This document shows positions 2,980 to 13,381 of a stretch of 64,000 nucleotides of DNA, piece after piece (position 1 is the first letter of the stretch; each line of letters opens with the position of its first letter). The position numbers were made by a program, and so were the translations under genes. Source of the DNA: Pseudophaeobacter sp. EL27 (lineage in GTDB: Bacteria; Pseudomonadota; Alphaproteobacteria; Rhodobacterales; Rhodobacteraceae); contig NZ_OMPQ01000013.1 in NCBI RefSeq assembly GCF_900313025.1, positions 124,001 to 188,000 of the forward strand, written 5' to 3'. The notes under the pieces are model-generated. The model did not search any database. It had not been told where the DNA came from and was given only the letters and a program-made list of their open reading frames with translations.

Positions 2980-4137
2980 TCAGTCAAAGCTTCTGAGATA
3001 GGCGATAACGGCTTCGATATCGCGTTCCTTGCGCAGGCCGGCAAAGGACATCTTGGTGCCCTTCATGAACTTGCGAGGCTTGGCCAGGAATGCCGCCAGG
3101 GCCTCTTCATTCCAGACCAGACCGTCTTCGCCAGCGGCCAGCATCGGTTTGGAGTATTTAAACCCCTCGACCTCGCCTGCACTTGCGCCAAAGATGCCAT
3201 TCAGGATCGGGCCTGTGCTGTTCTTGGCGCCCTCACCAACCTTGTGGCAGGCCTTGCACTTCTTGAACACCTTCGCACCCTTAGCGACCAATTCCGGATC
3301 CAGCGCCACTTCTTCGACCACGGGTTCTGCTGCCGCTTCAACCACGGCCTCTTCTGCGGTGGGCGCTTCGACTGCGGCCTCTTGAACCACGGCTTCGCTG
3401 GTCTCTTCTTCTGGCGTCACATCGAGCACCCGCGCCCGCATGGTGATTTCCACGCTGTCCTTACAATCGGACATGCAGGGCGCGGCCTTCCAGAAATGCG
3501 CCTCGCTTTGCAGTCGGTCATCCACAAAGAACCCTTCGGCATTGGGCAGCTCGACATCGGCAAATGTCTCGTTTGAGAGCACAAAATCATCATCCACCAG
3601 ATCGTTGGAGTAGAGGATATAGGCCACGATGGCATAGACCTCATCCGCTTCCAGCGTCTGCGCCGCGCCAAAGGGCATCGAACGGTTCACATAGTCCCAG
3701 GTGGTGGACAGATAGGGCCAGTAGGAACCCACCGTTTTCAACGGATCCTCATGATCCAGCGTGCCCTGCCCGCCGGCCAGTTTTGGCCAATTGTCGACGC
3801 CCTCGGCAAAGTCCCCGTGGCAAACGGCACATTTCTCGGCAAAGACTTCTTCGCCGGTCAGCGCATCACCAGATCCAACCGGCAGACCGGTGCCATCAGG
3901 GGAGACATCAATATCCCAGGCGGCAATCTCTTCCGGCAGAGCGGGACGGCCAAGGCCGTATTCCCCTGCAGTTGCGGCAGAGGCTGCAACGATGAAAGAG
4001 GCCGCCCAAGCCATACCCCGTCCGGCCGCAAGGCCGGGCAGCGCCCGTCCGCCCCCCTGGGCGGGCGCTTCGCTTTCCGCCCGCGGCCGGGAGCCGCCCT
4101 CATTGTTGCCCATCAAGACTTCAAGAAACTTCGACAT
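2980..4137 (-). CDS. soxD: SoxD, di-heme c-type cytochrome subunit of sulfane dehydrogenase SoxCD
   Basis: SoxD passes electrons from the molybdenum subunit SoxC to the respiratory chain during oxidation of the SoxY-bound sulfane sulfur in the periplasm. Two CxxCH heme sites are visible: Cys103-Ala-Val-Cys106-His107 and Cys294-Lys-Ala-Cys297-His298. An Ala/Val/Glu-rich linker joins the two cytochrome domains; the second resembles a class I cytochrome c. A hydrophobic export segment lies at about residues 42-57. The ATG at 4137 is chosen because GGGGAGG sits 6 bases upstream; it overlaps the end of soxC by 17 bases. An alternative ATG is at 4113. A CxxxC pair (CMSDC) between the domains is additional. 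It is the last gene before the terminator. Confidence 0.93.
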   Translation of the reverse strand: MSKFLEVLMGNNEGGSRPRAESEAPAQGGGRALPGLAAGRGMAWAASFIVAASAATAGEYGLGRPALPEEIAAWDIDVSPDGTGLPVGSGDALTGEEVFAEKCAVCHGDFAEGVDNWPKLAGGQGTLDHEDPLKTVGSYWPYLSTTWDYVNRSMPFGAAQTLEADEVYAIVAYILYSNDLVDDDFVLSNETFADVELPNAEGFFVDDRLQSEAHFWKAAPCMSDCKDSVEITMRARVLDVTPEEETSEAVVQEAAVEAPTAEEAVVEAAAEPVVEEVALDPELVAKGAKVFKKCKACHKVGEGAKNSTGPILNGIFGASAGEVEGFKYSKPMLAAGEDGLVWNEEALAAFLAKPRKFMKGTKMSFAGLRKERDIEAVIAYLRSFD

Positions 4138-5413
4138 TTTCTGCCTCCCCATCTGCCTTGACCCACCAGGTCTGGATGGCGTTGTTGTGATAGATCGAAT
4201 TGAGACCGCGCACCGCGCGCAGCTCTGTCTTGGTCGGCTGCACATAGCCGGAGCTGTCGCGCGCCCGGCTTTGCAGCAGCATTTCCGAGCCGTCCCAATT
4301 GGTATCGAGGTAAAAGCGCGTCAGCGCCTTGTCAGTGCCTGGCGCACCCAGACGCGCCTGGGTCCAGGTCTTGCCACCATCAATCGACACATCGACGCCA
4401 GTGATCGCACCGCGACCGGACCAGGCGAGCCCGGTGATTACCAAGGGGCCCTTGCCATGGGTGATCGGCGCCTGCGGGCTGGGGCTAGTGACAACGGATT
4501 TGGCATCCATCTCCCAGGTCCATTTCCGGGCCGAGCCATCTTCCATGGTGTCGGTATATTTTGAGGTCTCCTCGCGGCTTTCCACCGGGCCATCCATGAC
4601 CTCGATGCGGCGCAGCCACTTGATCCACATATTGCCTTCCCAGCCGGGCACAACCAGTCGCACCGGATATCCGTGCTCCTTGCGCAGGGCCTCGCCATTG
4701 GCCTTAAAGGCCACCAGCACATCGTCCAGCGCCTTTTCCAGCGGGATGGAACGCCCGTTCGAGGAAGCATCTGCGCCCTCGACATAGACCCATTTGTCCT
4801 TGAAATCACCCGCTGCCGCCAAGCCCGCTTCTTCCAGCAGGGTGCGCAGCGACACACCGGAATATTCCATATTGTGGATCATGCCATGGGTAAACTGCGC
4901 GCCATTGAGCTGTGCGCCCGCCCATTCCATGCCGGAGTTGGCAGCACATTCGCAGAAATACACCCTATTCTCGCGCGGGAAACGCTCCAGATCGGCATAG
5001 GAGAACACCAAAGGTGTATCGACCAGGCCATTGATCATCAGGCGGTAGTCCTGCTTGGTCAGCTCGATGGCGCCGGAGTGGTGACGCTCAAAGGCGCAGC
5101 CCTGCGGGGTGATGGTGCCGTCGAGCGCGTGAATGGGCGTGAAGTTGATCGAGGAAATCGTATCCGCCGTCAGCCATTCCACATTGCGGCGCACCACGTC
5201 CTGTTCAAACTGGATTGGCATACCGTAAGGCGCGGCATCAACGCCGTCACCCAATCCGCTGGCCCAGTCCTGCACCTCGGTGATCAGGGGGTCCGGTGTT
5301 GCGGCCTGTGCTGCCTGGCTCGTGCCAACGGCGGCGGCCCCTACTCCGGTTGCCGCCGCACCGGCCAGAAACTGGCGGCGTGAGGGGGCAAAATCATCTG
5401 CTTTATCGCTCAT
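4121..5413 (-). CDS. soxC: SoxC, molybdopterin subunit of sulfane dehydrogenase
   Basis: SoxC is a sulfite-oxidase-family molybdoenzyme that, with SoxD, oxidises the sulfane sulfur left on SoxY, so thiosulfate is fully oxidised without storing sulfur globules. The N-terminus has a Tat signal (SRRQFLAG, then an Ala/Gly-rich core). The CECAAN segment carries Cys154 and Cys156; Cys156 aligns with the molybdenum-ligating cysteine of sulfite oxidases. The C-terminal half matches the dimerisation domain. The length of 430 residues is normal. AAGGAG lies 6-10 bases before the ATG. A separate operator palindrome (5437-5452) and a hairpin upstream suggest soxCD has its own promoter. Confidence 0.96.
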   Translation of the reverse strand: MSDKADDFAPSRRQFLAGAAATGVGAAAVGTSQAAQAATPDPLITEVQDWASGLGDGVDAAPYGMPIQFEQDVVRRNVEWLTADTISSINFTPIHALDGTITPQGCAFERHHSGAIELTKQDYRLMINGLVDTPLVFSYADLERFPRENRVYFCECAANSGMEWAGAQLNGAQFTHGMIHNMEYSGVSLRTLLEEAGLAAAGDFKDKWVYVEGADASSNGRSIPLEKALDDVLVAFKANGEALRKEHGYPVRLVVPGWEGNMWIKWLRRIEVMDGPVESREETSKYTDTMEDGSARKWTWEMDAKSVVTSPSPQAPITHGKGPLVITGLAWSGRGAITGVDVSIDGGKTWTQARLGAPGTDKALTRFYLDTNWDGSEMLLQSRARDSSGYVQPTKTELRAVRGLNSIYHNNAIQTWWVKADGEAENVEVS

Positions 5414-5436: not shown

Positions 5437-5452
5437 ATTCATCATTGTGAAT
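5437..5452. promoter_or_regulatory. Putative SoxR operator upstream of soxC
   Basis: The sequence is ATTC-N8-GAAT, within a longer AATTCA-N6-TGAATT palindrome at 5436-5453. It lies 24 bases upstream of the soxC start. The same palindrome with identical spacing is found before soxX, and the core is also found before soxB. As I recall, ATTC-N8-GAAT is the operator type reported for SqrR, a relative of SoxR. Confidence 0.7.
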
Positions 5453-5481
5453 TCATCAGCGCAAAAAATTTTGATCATCAA

Positions 5482-5513
5482 ACGCCTTGCCAAAAGGATC
5501 TATGGCAAGGCGT
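5482..5513 (-). terminator. Hairpin after soxB, possible terminator or RNA-processing site
   Basis: A perfect 10-bp stem pairs ACGCCTTGCC (5482-5491) with GGCAAGGCGT (5504-5513) across a 12-base loop, 11 bases past the soxB stop. On the minus strand a T-rich run (AAAATTTTTT) follows only after about 11 bases, so it is not a textbook terminator; partial termination or transcript-end protection is plausible. Confidence 0.55.
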
Positions 5514-5524
5514 CGGGGCGGGCC

Positions 5525-7222
5525 TTAGGCGCCGACCACGTTGACCGATGTGTTGGGGGTGACGGAAACCGTTCCCTGTTTGCGAATGTGGTCCTCGACC
5601 ACATCCCAGATCATTGGGCCTTCGGTGCCCTCGTTGACGCTGGCCCAGCCAGAAACCACATAAGATTTGCTGGCGTCGATTTTCTCACCGGTTTTCAGCA
5701 GGGTCATTTCACTGATGCGTTCGCCCTGTGGCTTGGTGATATCAATCCGGTAGCCCATGCCACCAATGCGGACCATATCGCCGCCCTGCTGGTAATAGGG
5801 ATCGGGGTTAAAGATGTTATCGGCCACATCCTCCAGAATCACCTTGATGAATTCACCCGTCATTTCTGAACGATAAGCAGCGCCGTAGCTCATCGAAGTG
5901 ACGTTCCAGATGTCTTCGCGGGTGATGTCATCGCCTGGGTTCAGTGAGGGCCCCCAGCGCACGCCCGGCGACATGGCAATATCGGCCTCGCGCTCGCTCA
6001 GCAGCGCGTCACAGATCAGATCATCCCAGGTGCCGTTGAAGTTGCCACGACGATAGAGCAGCGAGTCGGTCTTGCCGATCACCTCGGACAGTTGATCCGC
6101 ATAGGGCGCGCGCTGCTCGTCGATCAGTTTCGAGATCACCGGGTCGGGCGCAATCACATCCGAGAAGATCGGGATCAGCTTGTGGCGAATGCCCATCATC
6201 TGGCCGTCGCGCACATCCAGGTCAACGCGGCTGACAAATTTACCGTTGGATCCCGAGGCGATGATATGGGTTTTGCCCACCAAAACCGGCTCGGGCAGCG
6301 CGTCATGGGTATGGCCGGACAGGATCACATCAATGCCGGTGACCACACCGGCCATTTTCTTGTCGACGTCAAAGCCATTGTGACTCAGCACCACAACCAC
6401 ATCGGCACCGGCGGCGCGGACCTCATCGACCATTTCCTGCATGTGCTCGTCTCGAATACCAAAGGAGTACTCCGGGAACATCCAGCCAGGATTGGCGATG
6501 GGCATATAGGGGAAGGCCTGACCGATCACCGCCACCTTGGCACCACCTCGGTCAAAGAATTTGTAGGGTTTGAACAGTTCGGCGGGCTCATCCCACTCGC
6601 TGTCAAAGATGTTCTGGCCAAGGGCAGCAAAGGGCAGGCCCTCGACAATCTCGTTGACGCGATCAGAACCCAGGGTGAACTCCCAGTGGAAGGTCATCGC
6701 ATCGGGTTTCAGCGCGTTCATTACATTGACCATGTCCTGACCAGCGGTCTGGTGGCAGGTGTAGGAGCCATGCCAGGTGTCGCCGCCATCCAGCAGCAGC
6801 GCATCGGGGCGATCCGCACGGATGGCATTGATCACGGTGGCAACGCGGTCCATGCCCCCGACCCGGCCATAGCCCTGCGCTAATGAGGAGAAATCATCAT
6901 GGGTCAATGCATAGGCAGAGGGGCTGCCATCGGCGATGCCATAGGCCTTGCGGAAGTCCGCGCCAGTGACATGCGGCACATGCCCCTTGTTGCCACCAAC
7001 GCCCAGGTTGACCGAAGGTTCGCGGAAATAGATCGGTTTCAGCTGCGCGTGAATATCAGTGATATGGATCAGGCTGATATTGCCAAAGGTGTCAAACTGC
7101 AGCAGCTGGTCCTGAGTCAGGCTCTGCTGCGCGGCCAGACGACCCCAGTTGCCAAAGCCAGAAGCGCCAACCAGAGCGGAGGCGGCCATCGATACCTGCA
7201 AAAAATCACGGCGCGAGATCAT
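5525..7222 (-). CDS. soxB: SoxB, di-manganese thiosulfohydrolase
   Basis: SoxB hydrolyses the terminal sulfone group from the SoxY-bound cysteine S-thiosulfonate, releasing sulfate in the periplasm. The 565-residue protein has a Tat signal (SRRDFLQVSMAAS). It has the metallophosphatase/5'-nucleotidase fold: HITDIHAQ near residue 54 and LLLDGGDTWHGSYTC carry metal ligands, and GHTHDALP carries the distal histidines. The WHGSYT segment is typical of SoxB and separates it from true nucleotidases such as the one at 38306-39889. It is preceded by a terminator-like hairpin and an ATTC-N8-GAAT operator, so it may be its own transcription unit. Confidence 0.96.
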   Translation of the reverse strand: MISRRDFLQVSMAASALVGASGFGNWGRLAAQQSLTQDQLLQFDTFGNISLIHITDIHAQLKPIYFREPSVNLGVGGNKGHVPHVTGADFRKAYGIADGSPSAYALTHDDFSSLAQGYGRVGGMDRVATVINAIRADRPDALLLDGGDTWHGSYTCHQTAGQDMVNVMNALKPDAMTFHWEFTLGSDRVNEIVEGLPFAALGQNIFDSEWDEPAELFKPYKFFDRGGAKVAVIGQAFPYMPIANPGWMFPEYSFGIRDEHMQEMVDEVRAAGADVVVVLSHNGFDVDKKMAGVVTGIDVILSGHTHDALPEPVLVGKTHIIASGSNGKFVSRVDLDVRDGQMMGIRHKLIPIFSDVIAPDPVISKLIDEQRAPYADQLSEVIGKTDSLLYRRGNFNGTWDDLICDALLSEREADIAMSPGVRWGPSLNPGDDITREDIWNVTSMSYGAAYRSEMTGEFIKVILEDVADNIFNPDPYYQQGGDMVRIGGMGYRIDITKPQGERISEMTLLKTGEKIDASKSYVVSGWASVNEGTEGPMIWDVVEDHIRKQGTVSVTPNTSVNVVGA

Positions 7223-7268
7223 ATCTATCTGTCATCCTGTGCGATCATAGCCAGCAAACATGATTCAC

Positions 7269-7284
7269 ATTCGCATCTATGAAT
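7269..7284. promoter_or_regulatory. Putative SoxR operator upstream of soxB
   Basis: Perfect ATTC (7269-7272), eight bases, GAAT (7281-7284). It lies between the soxA/soxB terminator and the soxB start, 47 bases upstream of the ATG. The outer bases are less symmetric than at soxX and soxC, so it may bind more weakly. Confidence 0.6.
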
Positions 7285-7297
7285 TCGTTTAAAGCGA

Positions 7298-7329
7298 AAC
7301 ACCCCGCGCCAGCAAGGACGCGGGGTGTT
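7298..7329 (-). terminator. Intercistronic terminator between soxA and soxB
   Basis: A perfect 11-bp stem, AACACCCCGCG (7298-7308) and CGCGGGGTGTT (7319-7329), has a 10-base loop and lies 7 bases past the soxA stop. Reading leftward it is followed by TTTCGCTTTAAA. It should end or attenuate transcription of soxXYZA before soxB. Confidence 0.75.
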
Positions 7330-7336
7330 GGTGTGT

Positions 7337-8188
7337 TTAGTTACGGACCGAGGGGCCTTCGACGGCCAGGCCGTTGCCGCGCGAGGCGACATAAAGCTCA
7401 AGTGCGACAAAATCGGACGAGCCGGGCTTGTAGGTCTCGGCGCGGGTGTCCCGCACGCAGCCTTTAAAGCGGGCATGCACGTTGTTGAGCTTGGCGTTTT
7501 TCAGACGGTAGGTTGGGAAACCGTTGATCTGGCCCTGGCTCAGGTGATCCGCGCGGATCATCAGCCCATAGCTGTCCTCGTGGCAATTGGCGCAGGAGAG
7601 TTCCAGCTGACCGGTGCGGGCATAGTACATTTCCTTGCCCTGCTCCCAGACCGACTGAACGGGACCGTCGATAGCCACATTGACCGGCATGCCACGCGAT
7701 TGCACCGAGATCAGCGCTTCCATCGCAGTCATGTCACCGCCAGTGTATTTCCAGGCCTTGGCGCCCATCTGGTTTTCGCGGCAGTCATTGACCTGCATCG
7801 CCAATGTGCGAACTTCGCCAGCTGTCTCGTTCCACTTTGGATAGACCGCGCGAACGCCCGCCATGCTCTCCTCCACGTCATCATGGCAGGAAGCACAGGA
7901 TTTGCCCTCGGAGCCGTCAGCGGTTTCCCAGGCGTCCATCGCCTTGTCGACAAAAACCATGGCGGGGTTTTCAAAATCATCCATCTGCAGAGCCTGGGTC
8001 TCATCCGAGCGGAAGTGCCAGCCCGACATCACCTCATCCATGACATCGGATAGATGCGCAGGAGCGGCGGTCTTGGTCACCAGGGTTTCTTCTTCGTTGA
8101 GTACCAGCGTGTCATCATCCGCATCCGCATAGGCGGAGAGCGGCAGGCTCAGTGCGACAGCAATGGCGGTAAGCGCCTTATAGTTCAT
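7337..8188 (-). CDS. soxA: SoxA, di-heme L-cysteine S-thiosulfotransferase subunit
   Basis: With SoxX, SoxA oxidatively couples thiosulfate to the SoxY carrier cysteine in the periplasm. A Sec signal (residues 1-22, ending SAYADA) leads the 283-residue protein. Two heme sites are present, Cys98-Ala-Ser-Cys101-His102 and Cys199-Ala-Asn-Cys202-His203, so this is the di-heme form. Cys244, in KGCVRDTRAE, matches the active-site heme ligand that becomes a cysteine persulfide. GGAGGACAAGGA precedes the ATG. A hairpin in the 75-base gap to soxZ may adjust message levels. Confidence 0.95.
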   Translation of the reverse strand: MNYKALTAIAVALSLPLSAYADADDDTLVLNEEETLVTKTAAPAHLSDVMDEVMSGWHFRSDETQALQMDDFENPAMVFVDKAMDAWETADGSEGKSCASCHDDVEESMAGVRAVYPKWNETAGEVRTLAMQVNDCRENQMGAKAWKYTGGDMTAMEALISVQSRGMPVNVAIDGPVQSVWEQGKEMYYARTGQLELSCANCHEDSYGLMIRADHLSQGQINGFPTYRLKNAKLNNVHARFKGCVRDTRAETYKPGSSDFVALELYVASRGNGLAVEGPSVRN

Positions 8189-8210
8189 TCCTTGTCCTCC
8201 CTTGGGTATC

Positions 8211-8238
8211 CACCCGGGCCACAGATGTGGCCAGGGTG
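8211..8238 (-). other. Intercistronic hairpin between soxZ and soxA
   Basis: CACCC pairs with GGGTG outside GGCCACA/TGTGGCC, with one mismatch and a 2-base tip. No T-run follows in the direction of transcription, so a role in RNA stability or processing is more likely than termination. Confidence 0.5.
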
Positions 8239-8263
8239 CCGTGCCTTTGAGATCCGGAAGGGA

Positions 8264-8593
8264 TCAGGCCATAGCGACCGATTTGGTCGCGTCGTAGACC
8301 GACCCATCATCGTCGTACCAGGTGAATTTGAAATCACCGGCTTCGGGCACGATGGCCTCGAACTGGAAATAGGGGTTGGTCGAAACCGCGGGTTCGATGG
8401 TGATGTCTGTCACCAGCTGACCGTTGAATTCGCAGGTAAAGCGATTGATGATCGAGCGCGGGATGATATTGCCCTCTTTATCCTTGCGCTGGCCGCTTTC
8501 CATCTGGTGGCTGATCAGGGTCTTGATGGTGATCGCCTCACCAGGGGTTGCCTTCTTGGGGACTTTGACGCGGGGTTTTACACCGGATGCCAT
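8264..8593 (-). CDS. soxZ: SoxZ, sulfur carrier partner of SoxY
   Basis: SoxZ forms the heterodimer with SoxY that carries all sulfur intermediates of the pathway. The 109-residue protein has no signal peptide and is normally exported with SoxY by the Tat route. It starts MASGVKPRVKVPKKA and has the immunoglobulin-like beta pattern and a C-terminal FTWYDDDGSVYDATK stretch typical of the family. A GAAGGAG motif lies upstream of the ATG. It follows soxY with a 67-base gap and precedes soxA, the usual X-Y-Z-A order. Confidence 0.95.
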   Translation of the reverse strand: MASGVKPRVKVPKKATPGEAITIKTLISHQMESGQRKDKEGNIIPRSIINRFTCEFNGQLVTDITIEPAVSTNPYFQFEAIVPEAGDFKFTWYDDDGSVYDATKSVAMA

Positions 8594-8660
8594 GTCTTAA
8601 ACTCCTTCGTATTCAGGCCGTATTGCAGGCCGTAATCGGGTATCAGCGGGGCTGAATGGA

Positions 8661-9080
8661 TCAGCCGCCGCAACCGCCGATGGTCACTTTCACAGCTGCG
8701 CTTGCCTTGGCAAAGCTGCCGTCGGCCAGCTTGGCGATGGCTACCACATCCTGGGTGCCTGCAAGGCGGATCCGGGTGGAGGCAGACTGACTGCCAGCCA
8801 GCGGGCCAAAGTTGAAGGTTGCAACACCGGGGGTTGGGTTGCCGGTGGCCAGAACCATGATCGCGGTGGCGCCAGGCGCATCGACCGAGATTGGCACGGT
8901 ATTGCCGTTTTCAGCAATCTCGGGCGCAGTCAGTTCAATTCCGGTGTCGGCCATGTCGGCACCACCAGTAAACTCGGCAATCCGATCATCAACGATGCTG
9001 GCACTGACGCGCAGTGGCAGGACCGTCATCACAGCAGCACCCAGGGCCAAGCCCAGGGTCTCACGGCGTGAGAACTCCAT
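8661..9080 (-). CDS. soxY: SoxY, covalent sulfur carrier protein
   Basis: SoxY holds thiosulfate, sulfane and sulfonate groups on the cysteine of its C-terminal swinging arm. The protein ends VTIGGCGG, the diagnostic arm. The N-terminus FSRRETLGLALGAAV is a Tat signal. Two ATGs lie next to each other at 9083 and 9080; GGAG is 7 bases before the second, which I choose, giving 139 residues. A longer frame from 9104 would bury the ribosome site and is unlikely. It lies 50 bases after soxX. Confidence 0.95.
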   Translation of the reverse strand: MEFSRRETLGLALGAAVMTVLPLRVSASIVDDRIAEFTGGADMADTGIELTAPEIAENGNTVPISVDAPGATAIMVLATGNPTPGVATFNFGPLAGSQSASTRIRLAGTQDVVAIAKLADGSFAKASAAVKVTIGGCGG

Positions 9081-9130
9081 CATATGTCTCCTTTGACGTT
9101 TCATAAAGCGGCAGGGCGAGCGCCCTCGCT

Positions 9131-9607
9131 TTACTCTTCTTTTAGGGTCGCAATAAATGCGATCACATCTTCAATTTCCTGGGCCGACAGGATTGGTGTC
9201 AGCGCCTCGGTGGGGGCTTTACCAGTATAGGCGGCACCTGGACGAATAAAGCCTTCAACCTTGTAGAATGCAGGCATCATGGTGCCCTCAAAGGTCATCT
9301 TGGCATTGGTCATCAACCCGCGCAGCTCTGCCTCGGTCCAGCGATCCCCGGCGCCATCCAGCGAAGGGCCGATTTCACCGTGAAACGGCACATCTGCCAG
9401 GGCTGTCACCTGGTGACAGGCAACACAGTTGCCCAGCGATTTGGTGCCCGCGATAACGGCACCGCTTGCCGCATCGCCCGGCTGTCCGGTCAAGGAGGCT
9501 GCTACGGCGCCATCCTCGTTATACTGCACATCCTTAGGCGCGACCTCCGCCGCCAGGGTTACACTCCCGGTCAGGCACAGGGCCAGTGTCAGAGATAGTC
9601 TCTTCAT
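9131..9607 (-). CDS. soxX: SoxX, mono-heme cytochrome subunit of SoxAX
   Basis: SoxX takes electrons from SoxA during thiosulfate coupling to SoxY. One heme site is present, Cys61-Val-Ala-Cys64-His65, with a likely methionine ligand in the TMMPAFY region. A Sec signal covers about residues 1-20. The ATG at 9607 is chosen because GGGAGGA lies 4-5 bases upstream and a signal peptide follows directly; a longer frame from 9700 has neither and would begin inside the operator. It is first in soxXYZA, just downstream of a TATAAT box overlapped by an ATTC-N8-GAAT site. Confidence 0.95.
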   Translation of the reverse strand: MKRLSLTLALCLTGSVTLAAEVAPKDVQYNEDGAVAASLTGQPGDAASGAVIAGTKSLGNCVACHQVTALADVPFHGEIGPSLDGAGDRWTEAELRGLMTNAKMTFEGTMMPAFYKVEGFIRPGAAYTGKAPTEALTPILSAQEIEDVIAFIATLKEE

Positions 9608-9694
9608 GATTCCTCCCGTTGGCTGCCACTCGCCTCCTAGCGAGCTTAGCTGTTGTATACCGTAGGGCACCCGGCCTCGGAAACGCAACAACAA

Positions 9695-9717
9695 ATTCAA
9701 TAGTGTGAATTATTATA
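9695..9717 (-). promoter_or_regulatory. soxX promoter -10 box and putative SoxR operator
   Basis: A perfect TATAAT reads leftward at 9717-9712. Directly downstream is ATTC-N8-GAAT at 9695-9710, within the AATTCA-N6-TGAATT palindrome at 9694-9711. Binding there would cover the transcription start, as expected for a repressor. No good -35 box is visible at the usual spacing. Confidence 0.7.
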
Positions 9718-9732: not shown

Positions 9733-10326
9733 TCAATCCGCCGACCCATTGTTGCGCTCCGATATACGGCGCGCGTGGTAGCGTTGAAAATCTTCCCCGT
9801 TGTCAAGAAGATACCGCTTCTCTGTCACCCAGGTGAACATGTCAATCGTGGTTCCACCACCAAAGGCGCCGGGCATGATGGCGACTGATGCCTGCGCCGC
9901 CGTCTGCCCCTCGGCCACCTCTTCCGGCAGAAACAGAATCGTCGGGGTGAACATCACGCCCCATTTGCGCGCCATGTCTTTTTCCGACAGGGTCGCACCG
10001 TCAAAATCGGTGACTTCGACATCACCATAGAGGTTCATCTGCACCACAAAGTAGTGCTCTTCAATATATCCGCCAATTTCCGGACGCGGGAAAATCTCGG
10101 TGTGCATCTTGGTGCAATAGATGCAGCCGCGCTGTTCAAAAAACAGCACCAGACGTTTGCCCTCGGCATTGGCCTCTTCCAGATCTTCCCGCAGATCCTT
10201 GAAAGTCTCGCGCATCCAGGGTGTTTTATGCAGCCCGTCATCGCCCAGCTCAACGGCGGCAACATCCGAGGCTATCAGCGGCAGTGCCATGGTCAGGGCT
10301 GCCAGTTTCATCATCCAATGCTTCAT
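9733..10326 (-). CDS. soxW: SoxW, periplasmic thioredoxin-like protein
   Basis: SoxW is the thioredoxin partner of the membrane reductant carrier SoxV, helping to keep SoxY/SoxZ thiols active. It has a Sec signal at residues 1-24 and a thioredoxin-fold active site GCIYC (Cys68, Cys71), followed by MFTPTILFLPE with the conserved cis-proline. Length is 197 residues. GGAGGGG lies 6-7 bases before the ATG. It follows soxV by 66 bases and ends 15 bases before the soxX promoter, so read-through into soxX is possible. Confidence 0.9.
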   Translation of the reverse strand: MKHWMMKLAALTMALPLIASDVAAVELGDDGLHKTPWMRETFKDLREDLEEANAEGKRLVLFFEQRGCIYCTKMHTEIFPRPEIGGYIEEHYFVVQMNLYGDVEVTDFDGATLSEKDMARKWGVMFTPTILFLPEEVAEGQTAAQASVAIMPGAFGGGTTIDMFTWVTEKRYLLDNGEDFQRYHARRISERNNGSAD

Positions 10327-10392: not shown

Positions 10393-11133
10393 TCACCCCA
10401 ATGTCGCAAAGCCGGGCATCCAGCGGATCATCAGATCCGCAATCCAGCGCACCCCGCCGGTGACAATCAGCAGGGCAAACAGGATCAGCATGGCCCCCAT
10501 AATCTTTTCCACCCAGTGAAACACCGCCCGGTGCCGCGCCACCCAGGCCAGAAACGGCTTTGCAAACAGCGCTGCCACCACAAAGGGCGCCGTCATCGCC
10601 GCGCCATAGACAAAGAGCAGCGCTCCGCCACGCCAGACCTCTCCCAGCCCCGAGGCCACCATCAGGATGGAGGCCAGAGCCGGGCCAACACAGGGGGTCC
10701 AGCCAAAGCCAAAGGCCAGCCCCATCAGATAGGCGCCCGCCAGACTTGATGGGTCCGCAGAACTCTCCACCCGTGCCTCACGGTACAGCAAAGGGATGCG
10801 GATCACGCCGAGAAAATGCAGGCCAAAGACCACCAGGATCAAAGCCGCGACATATGCGAGGATATCCATATACTGACCGAAGAGCTGCCCCAGCGCCGTC
10901 GCCCCCATGCCCATCAGCATGAAGACCGAGGTCACCCCAGCGGCAAAACACAGGGCTGCCAGAACCATACGACGCTGCGCTCCGGGCGCGATCTCACCGT
11001 CACTGCGCAGTTCCGCCATCGACAGACCACCCAGGTAGGACAGGTAAAAAGGTACCATTGGCAGGATGCAGGGGGTGAAAAAGCTCAGCAATCCGGCAAA
11101 AGCCGCCCCAAGGTATGAAATTTCCAGCATCAC
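10393..11133 (-). CDS. soxV: SoxV, CcdA/DsbD-type membrane electron carrier
   Basis: SoxV moves reducing power from cytoplasmic thioredoxin to the periplasm for the Sox carrier proteins. The 246-residue protein has six hydrophobic segments and the two conserved CcdA cysteines, in FFTPCILPMVPFY near the N-terminus and GWTPCVGPALAS in the middle. GTG (11133) and ATG (11130) are adjacent possible starts; GGAGG lies about 11 bases before the GTG. It is divergent from soxS across a region holding palindromic operator-like sequence. Confidence 0.92.
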   Translation of the reverse strand: MMLEISYLGAAFAGLLSFFTPCILPMVPFYLSYLGGLSMAELRSDGEIAPGAQRRMVLAALCFAAGVTSVFMLMGMGATALGQLFGQYMDILAYVAALILVVFGLHFLGVIRIPLLYREARVESSADPSSLAGAYLMGLAFGFGWTPCVGPALASILMVASGLGEVWRGGALLFVYGAAMTAPFVVAALFAKPFLAWVARHRAVFHWVEKIMGAMLILFALLIVTGGVRWIADLMIRWMPGFATLG

Positions 11134-11170
11134 GGTTTTATGATCCTCCGAGCCACGGGCTCTGTTGGCG

Positions 11171-11199
11171 TAACACTTGTGTTATTCACATATTCAAAT
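11171..11199. promoter_or_regulatory. soxV/soxS divergent control region with palindromes
   Basis: TAACAC-TT-GTGTTA (11171-11184) has perfectly complementary arms. Overlapping its last base is ATTC-N8-AAAT (11184-11199), one base away from the ATTC-N8-GAAT sites found at soxX, soxB and soxC. It sits between the divergent soxV and soxS genes, where SoxR binding is known in related organisms. Confidence 0.5.
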
Positions 11200-11247
11200 T
11201 ATGTTGTATCAAGCCGCAATTTGCGGAAGCCGTCAACGGTTGAGGTC

Positions 11248-11685
11248 ATGAATAGTCAAGGTTCACCTTTTGTAACGCGCCGCCTCTTTACAGCTGCGGC
11301 CCTGTCGATGGCTGCCGCGCTGTCTTTTGCCGCTGCCCTGCCCGCGCAAGCCGGTGAAGCCCTGGCTGCGGCCCCTGTGGGGCCTGAGCTGATCATGGTA
11401 GAGCAGGCAGGCTGTGAATGGTGCAAACGCTGGAACGACGAAATCGGACCAATCTACCCAAAGACGCGCGAGGGAGAATTTGCCCCCCTGCGCCGGGTAG
11501 ATCTGCGGGCCATTCCCGATGACATAACGGTCCAACGTCGGGTGAGTTTCACCCCAACCTTCTTGATTGTACAAGACGGTCATGAGATGGCCCGTCTCGA
11601 AGGATACCCGGGGGAGGATTTTTTCTGGCCCCTGATCGCCAAACTGATGAGCAAGCATCTGGGGTTCCTGCCCGAAGGGGCTTAA
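11248..11685 (+). CDS. soxS: SoxS, periplasmic thioredoxin
   Basis: SoxS is a periplasmic thiol-disulfide protein that reactivates the SoxYZ carrier in Paracoccus. The protein has an export signal (RRLFTAAALSMAAALSF, ending AQAGEA) and a CxxC site, Cys56-Glu-Trp-Cys59, followed by a cis-proline loop FTPTFLIV. I choose the ATG at 11248 because the signal peptide follows at once; upstream codons back to 11140 would include the control region. The ribosome site (GAGG) is close to the ATG. It is divergent from soxV and is followed by soxR. Confidence 0.88.
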   Translation: MNSQGSPFVTRRLFTAAALSMAAALSFAAALPAQAGEALAAAPVGPELIMVEQAGCEWCKRWNDEIGPIYPKTREGEFAPLRRVDLRAIPDDITVQRRVSFTPTFLIVQDGHEMARLEGYPGEDFFWPLIAKLMSKHLGFLPEGA

Positions 11686-11766: not shown

Positions 11767-12108
11767 ATGGCACTACCGCAATTCTCGGCCGATATGGCCC
11801 CGGAAGAGCTGGACAACATGGTGGACAATGCCACCACCGCCTCAAATTTTCTCAAGGCGATCAGCCATGAGGGGCGGTTGATGATCCTGTGCCATCTGGT
11901 CACCGGTGAGAAATCGGTAACCGAGCTCGAAGATCTGCTGTCGGCGCGCCAGGCGGCGGTGTCGCAGCAGCTGTCGCGGTTGCGGCTCGAGGGGCTGGTG
12001 GTGCCGCGCCGGGATGGCAAGGCGATCTATTACCGTCTGGCCGATGACCGTCCGCGCCGTATCCTCGAAGTGGTTTATGATCTCTTCTGCGCCGACAAGG
12101 CCGACTAG
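11767..12108 (+). CDS. soxR: SoxR, ArsR-family persulfide-responsive repressor of sox genes
   Basis: This 113-residue winged-helix protein belongs to the ArsR branch with SqrR and BigR, which sense reactive sulfur species. A helix-turn-helix (SVTELEDLLSARQAAVSQQLSRL) is followed by a beta wing (GLVVPRRDGKAIYYRL). Two cysteines, Cys42 (LMILC) and Cys108 (DLFC), sit at the positions equivalent to the SqrR pair that forms a polysulfide bridge. No classical metal-binding cysteine motif is present. AGGAGA lies 8 bases before the ATG. Its likely targets are the ATTC-N8-GAAT palindromes within the locus. The symbol here means the sulfur-oxidation repressor, not the redox MerR protein of the same name. 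Confidence 0.9.
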   Translation: MALPQFSADMAPEELDNMVDNATTASNFLKAISHEGRLMILCHLVTGEKSVTELEDLLSARQAAVSQQLSRLRLEGLVVPRRDGKAIYYRLADDRPRRILEVVYDLFCADKAD

Positions 12109-12322: not shown

Positions 12323-13381
12323 ATGTTTGATCTGTTCAGCGATCACCAACTGGTCACAGCTATTGGTCTTTTGGGTGGCATCCTGCTGGGGCTGGCGGCC
12401 CGATTGGGGCGGTTCTGCACCCTGGGCGCCATCGAAGACCTGCTCTATGGCGGCTCCTCCCATCGGATGCGTATGTGGGGTCTGGCCATTGGGACCGCAG
12501 TCATCGGTAGTTTCTCCCTCATCGGGTTGGGGCTGTTTGATGCCTCCCAGTCCTTCTACCTCTCGGTGCGCTGGATGCCCCTGGCCTCGATTGTGGGCGG
12601 GGTGATGTTTGGCTATGGCATGGCGCTGAGTGGCAATTGCGGATTTGGCGCCATTGCGCGGCTGGGCGGCGGTGATCTGCGCAGTTTCGTGATCGTTCTG
12701 GTGATGGGGATCTCCACCTATGTGGTGCTCACAGGCCCTCTGGCTCCGCTGCGTAACTTATTGTTCGAACAGCAGGATGTCACCAGAGAGGTGCCCCCGG
12801 GACTGGCGCATCACCTGGCTGCGCTGACCCATCTGCCGCTGGCCGGCATTGGTATTTTCACCGGGATCATTCTGGTGAGTGTCAGCCTATGGGATGTGGA
12901 GTTCCGCCGCGATCACAAGAGCCTATTCTGGTCTGTTGTCGTCGGCCTGGCAGTGGTCTCCGGCTGGGCGGGCACTGCCTATATCAACGCCCAGGGATTT
13001 GAGGCGCTGCCGGTTGTCTCGCATTCCTTTTCCGCCCCCTTGGGCGAAACCATCCTCTGGACCATGACCGGCAGCCTGCGCCCTCTTTCCTTTGCGGTGG
13101 GCTCCATCACCGGTGTCTGGCTGGGGGCCTTTATCGGATCACTGATCAAGGGGCATTTTCGCTGGGAAGCCTGCGACGATCCGCGCGAGCTGCGGCGTCA
13201 AATCTTTGGTGCTTCCATCATGGGCGCAGGCGCCGTCATCGCCATGGGCTGCACCGTGGGGCAAGGGCTCAGCGCCTTCTCCCTGCTCTCGCTCTCGGCC
13301 CCCGTCACCTTCTTGGCGATTTTTGCCGGGGCCGCCCTGGGGCTACGCCAGCTGATCGAAGGGTTTCGCAGCGCTGCCTAG
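12323..13381 (+). CDS. soxT: SoxT-like YeeE/YedE sulfur transport protein
   Basis: This 352-residue protein is almost entirely hydrophobic helices. It contains two YeeE/YedE (PF04143-type) signatures, MALSGNCGFGAIARLGGGDLR and GCTVGQGLSAFS, each with the conserved cysteine that relays thiosulfate or related sulfur compounds across the membrane in the TsuA family. Its position after soxS-soxR matches soxT of Pseudaminobacter-type sox loci. AGGAGGAGAG precedes the ATG. It is 214 bases after soxR, long enough for a separate promoter, though I see no operator there. It could feed sulfur to the cytoplasm as an inducing signal; that role is inference. Confidence 0.83.
   Translation: MFDLFSDHQLVTAIGLLGGILLGLAARLGRFCTLGAIEDLLYGGSSHRMRMWGLAIGTAVIGSFSLIGLGLFDASQSFYLSVRWMPLASIVGGVMFGYGMALSGNCGFGAIARLGGGDLRSFVIVLVMGISTYVVLTGPLAPLRNLLFEQQDVTREVPPGLAHHLAALTHLPLAGIGIFTGIILVSVSLWDVEFRRDHKSLFWSVVVGLAVVSGWAGTAYINAQGFEALPVVSHSFSAPLGETILWTMTGSLRPLSFAVGSITGVWLGAFIGSLIKGHFRWEACDDPRELRRQIFGASIMGAGAVIAMGCTVGQGLSAFSLLSLSAPVTFLAIFAGAALGLRQLIEGFRSAA

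What the first reader, a model, noticed from the sequence alone, without database searches (positions are those of the whole stretch)
5437..9717. Sox pathway carries repeated ATTC-N8-GAAT operators, one before each sub-unit
Seen: perfect ATTC-N8-GAAT at 5437-5452 (soxC), 7269-7284 (soxB) and 9695-9710 (soxX), plus ATTC-N8-AAAT at 11184-11199 (soxV/soxS). The soxC and soxX copies share the longer AATTCA-N6-TGAATT form. The eight fixed bases should occur by chance less than about once in 64 kb of GC-rich DNA, yet three lie in short sox gaps. The form matches the operator I recall for the ArsR sensor SqrR, and a SqrR-like SoxR is encoded in the locus. Inference: SoxR represses soxXYZA, soxB and soxCD separately, so the ratio of thiosulfate-coupling, hydrolase and sulfane dehydrogenase steps can differ with sulfur state.
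Basis: partly seen in the sequence, partly recalled or inferred. Interest (0 to 1): 0.72.

Follow-up and report, generated by a model that had tools for sequence, protein, structure and literature searches.

The report
Sulfur-sensing operators before sox genes
A marine bacterium's thiosulfate-oxidation genes carry repeated copies of a DNA switch of the kind that sulfur-sensing repressors bind; many relatives keep such copies at the same spots and before two genes elsewhere, so the pathway is probably switched on in several blocks by one sensor.

Summary
Observation confirmed: exact ATTC-N8-GAAT at 5437, 7269 and 9695, one mismatch at 11184; 5 exact matches in the window against 1.0 expected, the other two in coding DNA. 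Among 80 named relatives the soxX site is exact in 79 of 80, the soxB-gap site in 23 of 80, the soxC-gap site in 17 of 75; other sox gaps have none. The soxS/soxV site is a conserved variant (61 of 80 loci, window included). ATTC-N8-GAAT is the published deduced SqrR site, and the encoded SoxR is a close SqrR relative with both cysteines. Terminator-like hairpins precede the soxB and soxC sites, so soxXYZA, soxB and soxCD are probably separate units. Elsewhere in the genome the motif is conserved upstream of a SoxH-like hydrolase gene (exact in 16 of 17 loci) and hemA (12 of 30; 10 of 12 in the genus); two other gap matches were not conserved.

Against: no binding or transcript data; the soxB element mostly reads GCAT in relatives; the soxC site is patchy; a more distant set is weaker and two Paracoccus loci lack all three exact sites. 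Ratio control is untested. Verdict: a real, lineage-specific multi-operator variant of a known repressor system.

The parts
9695..9710 (-). operator before soxX (soxXYZA)
   Evidence: exact motif; exact in 79 of 80 named loci and in 11 of 12 genomes of the genus with its flank
9684..9694 (-). conserved flank TTGTTGTTGCG behind the soxX operator
   Evidence: consensus of 81 loci
9658..9664 (-). conserved TACGGTA, possible -10 element of soxX
   Evidence: consensus of 81 loci; role inferred
7269..7284 (-). operator-like site before soxB
   Evidence: exact motif; exact in 24 of 81 loci with the window, within one mismatch in 67 of 81; 36 of the 67 read GCAT
7298..7329 (-). terminator-like hairpin after soxA, 13-pair stem
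   Evidence: such hairpins in 60 of 81 loci, 2.8 expected; a shorter form of it listed
5437..5452 (-). operator before soxC (soxCD)
   Evidence: exact motif; exact in 18 of 76 loci with the window, 0.18 expected
5481..5514 (-). terminator-like hairpin after soxB, 12-pair stem
   Evidence: such hairpins in 8 of 44 gaps examined, 0.6 expected; not listed by the scan, whose loop limit is 8 (this loop is 10)
11184..11199 (.). operator variant shared by the divergent soxSRT and soxVW units (core 11184-11196)
   Evidence: one mismatch to the motif; core within 2 mismatches in 61 of 80 loci, window included
11767..12108 (+). soxR, ArsR-type repressor
   Evidence: solved relatives at E 1.1e-35; HTH_metalloreg above cut-off, BigR below it
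11248..11685 (+). soxS
   Evidence: named by place; syntenic in relatives
12323..13381 (+). soxT (YeeE/YedE-type)
   Evidence: named by place; syntenic
10393..11133 (-). soxV (CcdA/DsbD-like)
   Evidence: (below cut-offs), synteny
9733..10326 (-). soxW (thioredoxin-like)
   Evidence: (below cut-off), synteny
9131..9607 (-). soxX
   Evidence: above cut-off
8661..9080 (-). soxY
   Evidence: above cut-off
8264..8593 (-). soxZ
   Evidence: above cut-off
7337..8188 (-). soxA
   Evidence: above cut-off
5525..7222 (-). soxB
   Evidence: above cut-off
4121..5413 (-). soxC
   Evidence: above cut-off
2980..4137 (-). soxD (di-heme cytochrome; named by place)
   Evidence: no family above cut-off; synteny

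Best explanation
The repeats are operators of the locus's own SoxR, a sulfane-sulfur-sensing ArsR-type repressor. Without oxidizable sulfur the SoxR dimer sits on four sites: one shared by the divergent soxSRT and soxVW units, one before soxX, one before soxB, one before soxC. When sulfane sulfur bridges its two cysteines SoxR leaves the DNA. Terminator-like hairpins after soxA and after soxB make soxXYZA, soxB and soxCD at least partly separate transcription units with one common input. The same operator stands before a SoxH-like hydrolase gene and before hemA elsewhere in the genome, so heme supply is probably induced together with the heme-bearing Sox proteins. Shown by sequence: the sites, their conservation, the hairpins, the kinship of SoxR. 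Inferred: binding, promoters, separate transcripts, induction; the inducer is taken from Hyphomicrobium SoxR.
For: Placement: of 168 exact sites in 80 named loci 119 lie in the W-X, V-X, A-B and B-C gaps, 1 in S-V, 9 in sox genes, 39 in the rest, 0 in the other sox gaps (28.3 kb); expected in shuffles 0.37, 0.49 and 0.18 loci for W-X, A-B and B-C, seen 70 of 71, 24 of 81 and 18 of 76. S-V core in 61 of 80 loci within 2 mismatches, 17 of 1,620 random stretches. SoxR; of 79 named loci with soxR, 78 keep both cysteines by pattern and all 79 have RQAAVSQQL. Published SqrR site (PMC9774250 passages). Hairpins. Distant conserved sites: 16 of 17 loci (SoxH-like gene) and 12 of 30 (hemA), against controls exact in 2 of 10 (one at another position) and 1 of 9 loci, own included. 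G299, the one genus member of 12 without soxB, lacks close SoxR, the soxX site, the SoxH-like gene and the hemA site.
Against: No binding, transcript or mutant data. The soxB element reads GCAT in 36 of 67 loci. The soxC site is patchy, with at least 16 changes on a quick SoxB tree. In 47 more distant or plasmid loci exact sites fall to 22 of 41 (W-X), 5 of 46 (A-B), 4 of 46 (B-C), and the S-V core is within 2 mismatches in 15 of 46. The promoter scan found 5 matches with 4.2 expected. YgaV binds the katG promoter without this motif (PMC9774250 passage). Sox-bearing family genomes outside the genus mostly lack the hemA site (2 of 10 examined exact). The Z-A gap, which has no site, also has more hairpins than expected (9 of 57, 0.9 expected).
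Confidence: 0.65

Rival explanations
1. The sites bind SoxR, but those before soxB and soxC are not at promoters: they are roadblocks or helper sites on one long transcript that starts at soxX.
For: No promoter found above chance; conserved -35/-10-like elements were recognised only at S-V and, less surely, W-X.
Against: A terminator-like hairpin stands directly before the soxB site in 60 of 81 loci and before the soxC site in the window.
Confidence: 0.2
2. The soxB element is the site of another factor, or acts in the RNA; its likeness to the SoxR site is partial.
For: GCAT in 36 of 67 loci; the conserved block extends to TGTG on one side; five loci titled Ruegeria or Leisingera have a wider spaced form.
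Against: ATTCA is nearly invariant, 24 of 81 loci have the exact motif against 0.49 expected, and a second dyad centred 4 bases away shows no covariation.
Confidence: 0.3
3. A second SqrR-like protein, not SoxR, is the binder. The genome has one at G000:C8:467281, 55% identical.
For: It shares RQAAVSQ and both cysteines and a second relative of SoxR occurs in most of the 12 genus genomes.
Against: G299 keeps a relative of 60% identity but lacks close SoxR and the hemA site; soxR itself lies in 79 of 80 named sox loci. This rests on one genome.
Confidence: 0.1
4. Chance repeats in AT-richer gaps.
For: The motif is not over-represented genome-wide (45 sites), and one-mismatch matches are at chance in the window.
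Against: Shuffles of the same gaps and the placement across 80 loci.
Confidence: 0.02

Closest known systems
SoxR of Paracoccus pantotrophus and Pseudaminobacter salicylatoxidans
   Same: Same gene order soxTRS / soxVWXYZABCD, repressor of sox genes, SoxR-regulated divergent promoters between soxS and soxV (PMC5748708 passages; PMC10451225 introduction). That SoxR also binds the soxW-soxX gap there is recalled.
   Different: Two Paracoccus loci read here (L169, L170) have no exact site in the W-X, A-B or B-C gaps.
SqrR of Rhodobacter capsulatus and YgaV of Escherichia coli
   Same: Operator form ATTC-N8-GAAT (PMC9774250 passages); shared helix stretch and cysteine pair with the SqrR-type structures (that 6o8l is SqrR is recalled).
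   Different: Targets: SqrR regulates sqr and a rhodanese-domain gene (PMC9995734 passage); here sox genes and, probably, a SoxH-like gene and hemA.
SoxR and sHdrR of Hyphomicrobium denitrificans
   Same: One SoxR controls several units; EMSA showed SoxR on four of five probes (PMC10451225 passages).
   Different: Other gene order and a truncated Sox system; no palindrome was named in the passages seen, and find returned no 'ATTC'.
sox cluster of Starkeya novella
   Different: There soxYZBCD is written as one unit; operators were not described in the passages seen.

Membership tests
SqrR/SoxR-type sulfane-sulfur repressor (ArsR family) | ArsR/SmtB winged-helix protein close to SqrR | tested here: met
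   E 1.1e-35 to 13ct/6o8l group; HTH_metalloreg 80.9 bits, cut-off 55
SqrR/SoxR-type sulfane-sulfur repressor (ArsR family) | two conserved cysteines | tested here: met
SqrR/SoxR-type sulfane-sulfur repressor (ArsR family) | operator ATTC-N8-GAAT near target genes | tested here: met
   S-V only as a variant
SqrR/SoxR-type sulfane-sulfur repressor (ArsR family) | DNA binding lost on persulfide/polysulfide treatment | not testable with these tools
   known for Hyphomicrobium SoxR
BigR (NCBIfam equivalog NF040642) | score above the curated cut-off | tested here: not met
   94.8 bits, cut-off 155
Separate SoxR-controlled units soxXYZA, soxB, soxCD | terminator between units | tested here: met
   terminator-like hairpins in the window after soxA and soxB; function not shown
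Separate SoxR-controlled units soxXYZA, soxB, soxCD | promoter at each operator | tested here: inconclusive
   5 promoter-like matches, 4.2 expected; conserved TTGAC-N17 box at S-V in 41 of 61 loci
SoxR regulon: SoxH-like gene and hemA | site conserved upstream in relatives | tested here: met
   16 of 17 and 12 of 30 loci exact; hemA mainly within the genus
SoxR regulon: SoxH-like gene and hemA | derepression in a soxR mutant | not testable with these tools
   none

The most novel reading that the evidence does not exclude
In this group of Roseobacters SoxR runs a distributed regulon: its own operator for each block of the Sox cycle, one for a SoxH-like hydrolase and one for hemA, so a sulfane-sulfur sensor sets heme synthesis together with the heme-bearing Sox proteins, and the balance of steps evolves by gain and loss of single operators.
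Probability: 0.45. Interest if true: 0.6.

Novelty: new variant of a known kind. Interest (0 to 1): 0.45.

Why it matters
Roseobacters oxidize thiosulfate in marine biofilms (PMC10090131, abstract in listing and section 11). A site-by-site operator map makes it directly testable whether coupling, hydrolysis and sulfane oxidation are set separately, and a link from a sulfane-sulfur sensor to hemA would tie sulfur sensing to cofactor supply.

Tried and rejected
Chance was rejected by shuffles and placement. A genome-wide excess of the motif does not exist. One-mismatch counting in the window is uninformative, and so is the promoter scan. A second dyad at the soxB element was tested and showed no covariation. 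Two gap sites, before an RND adaptor gene and a PAS-type gene, served as controls and were not conserved. The ccmA-like hit was set aside because the motif covers its start codon. Gap hits L021 and L022 were not tested for conservation. Of the looser matches listed (both lists cut short), 20 stretches were fetched; 9 sites fell in gaps by rough tiling, and the starts of the neighbouring proteins were only looked at by eye, without a family search. Literature: no report of operators before soxB or soxC, or of a SoxR-hemA link, was seen in the listings of searches, which cover open-access papers only. Papers seen: passages of PMC9774250, PMC12423496, PMC9995734, PMC11582611, PMC3797975, PMC5748708; passages and introduction of PMC10451225; passages and section 11 of PMC10090131; term searches without a hit in PMC9143464 and PMC11858517. 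Shimizu 2017 is not held; Mandal 2007 and Rother 2005 were seen only as cited by others.
Full report
Check of the observation. Exact ATTC-N8-GAAT occurs 5 times in the window, 1.01 expected; the two outside the sox gaps lie inside ORFs. The whole genome has 45 exact sites, 35 of them inside ORFs by a rough tiling, so the motif is not enriched in general. AATTCA-N6-TGAATT occurs exactly three times: before soxC, before soxX, and once inside an ORF. Shuffles of the single gaps gave an exact match in 26 (W-X), 80 (A-B) and 156 (B-C) of 20,000 trials.

Footprint in relatives. A scan with SoxB gave 80 named loci, kept as the best 80 of 571; the gene order T-R-S, V-W-X-Y-Z-A-B-C-D is shared by most of the rows I could see, part of that output being cut. 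Counted with the window: W-X 70 of 71 exact (0.37 expected in shuffles), V-X where soxW is not between them 10 of 10, A-B 24 of 81 (0.49), B-C 18 of 76 (0.18), S-V 1 of 80 (0.26), and none in V-W, X-Y, Y-Z, Z-A, T-R, R-S or C-D. Within one mismatch: A-B 67 of 81, B-C 24 of 76, S-V 17 of 80. Of 168 exact sites in the 80 loci 119 lie in the W-X, V-X, A-B and B-C gaps, 1 in S-V, 9 inside sox genes, 39 in the rest and 0 in other sox gaps. Related loci are not independent: on a quick SoxB tree of 128 loci the exact W-X, A-B and B-C states change at least 6, 13 and 16 times. In the genus, the soxX site with its flank is found without mismatch in 11 of 12 genomes, the exception being G299.

The sites differ. 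The soxX site is a clean inverted repeat followed by a conserved TTGTTGTTGCG and, 19 bases further, TACGGTA; its bases 5 and 10 covary (38 of 81 complementary, 25.7 expected, 4 of 2,000 shuffles reach it). One of the five promoter-like matches (9736 to 9709, minus strand) ends on this operator, but the scan is not above chance. The S-V site is a conserved variant with the core TGAATATGTGAAT, within two mismatches in 61 of 80 loci and in 17 of 1,620 random stretches; TTGAC usually lies 17 bases before the TAAT box (41 of the 61), though the window and its nearest relative have a longer spacer (counted by eye). The soxB element reads GAAT in 28 and GCAT in 36 of 67 loci, and five loci titled Ruegeria or Leisingera have a wider form. 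The soxC site is patchy: exact in 13 nominal genera and lacking in 25, some in both; the 20 site-less B-C gaps that were printed are 14 to 86 bases long, against 111 in the window.

More distant loci. Forty unnamed family genomes with 73 to 83% SoxB identity, chosen by me from the list, and seven named plasmid loci gave exact sites in W-X 22 of 41, V-X 1 of 3, A-B 5 of 46, B-C 4 of 46, S-V 1 of 44, and 0 in X-Y, Y-Z, Z-A, V-W, R-S, T-R and C-D; the S-V core is within two mismatches in 15 of 46. Paracoccus pantotrophus L169 and P. denitrificans L170 have no exact site in W-X, A-B or B-C. So the soxX site reaches beyond the near relatives in part, and the soxB and soxC sites are mainly features of them.

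The regulator. SoxR matches the solved SqrR-type chains at E 1.1e-35 with RQAAVSQQL identical and both cysteines kept. In the 79 named loci with soxR, 78 keep both cysteines by a simple pattern and all 79 have RQAAVSQQL. That these chains are SqrR and that this stretch reads DNA is recalled. ATTC-N8-GAAT is printed as the deduced RcSqrR site; YgaV has a similar site at its own promoter but none at katG, which it also binds (PMC9774250, passages). Hyphomicrobium SoxR is released by sulfur bridging of its cysteines (PMC10451225, passages and introduction). A soxR deletion derepresses sox genes in Bradyrhizobium (PMC5748708, passages). In a Roseobacter thiosulfate induces all sox genes, and the seven Sox proteins change 2.40 to 64.93 fold in the membrane proteome (PMC10090131, section 11); unequal changes fit separate units but do not prove them.

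Beyond the locus. Ten of the 45 genome sites were in gaps by rough tiling: three sox sites, two conserved others, two controls, the ccmA-like case, and two not tested. Upstream of an MBL-fold hydrolase gene with a Tat-like signal (G000:C8:379496) the site is exact in 16 of 17 loci, own included, down to 37% identity. Relatives of this protein lie inside 32 of 127 sox loci, with an exact site in 14, one mismatch in 6 and none in 12, some of these cut or poorly aligned at the start; in two Paracoccus loci it lies behind soxD, where soxH is expected (recalled; NCBIfam gives only an AidB-lactonase match below its cut-off). Upstream of hemA (G000:C13:675893) the site is exact in 12 of 30 loci: 10 of 12 in the genus and 2 of 18 outside (lower-ranking hits were not scanned). 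Controls: RND gene exact in 2 of 10 loci (own, and one at another position), PAS gene in 1 of 9 (own). G299, the one of 12 genus members without soxB, has no close SoxR, no MBL gene at the threshold, no exact soxX site and no hemA site, though it keeps a SoxR-like protein of 60% identity. Ten sox-bearing family genomes outside the genus were examined at hemA and only 2 have the exact site. Sox-linked hemA genes in 13 loci have no exact site.

Judgement. The soxX site is a conserved regulatory site beyond reasonable doubt and very probably SoxR's; the case is good for S-V and soxC and fair for soxB. Separate regulation of soxB and soxCD is likely but unproven, and ratio control is untested. This is a lineage-specific elaboration of a known repressor system; hemA is its most surprising part.

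Noticed in passing
G000:C8:379496-379511 (L024) and G000:C13:675893-675908 (L036): Conserved ATTC-N8-GAAT upstream of an MBL-fold hydrolase gene and of hemA.
   Followed up: yes
L047 (G000:C8:467281-467583): A second SqrR/SoxR-like protein, 55% identical to SoxR, beside an enolase-superfamily-like ORF; also in most genus genomes.
   Followed up: partly
L052 and L088: Records titled Nocardioides marinus and Enemella evansiae carry Roseobacter-type sox loci (91 and 85% SoxB identity); the titles look mislabelled or the assemblies mixed.
   Followed up: no
L073, L074, L079: In three Aliiroseovarius loci the best soxW match (39-43% identity) lies after soxD instead of between soxV and soxX.
   Followed up: no
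L175:15808-17031 and 12 other loci: hemA-like genes lie inside sox loci in 13 of 127 loci, without an exact motif of their own.
   Followed up: partly
window 11134-11247: The spacer between TTGACG and the TAAT box upstream of soxV is longer in the window and L049 than the usual 17 bases (by eye).
   Followed up: no
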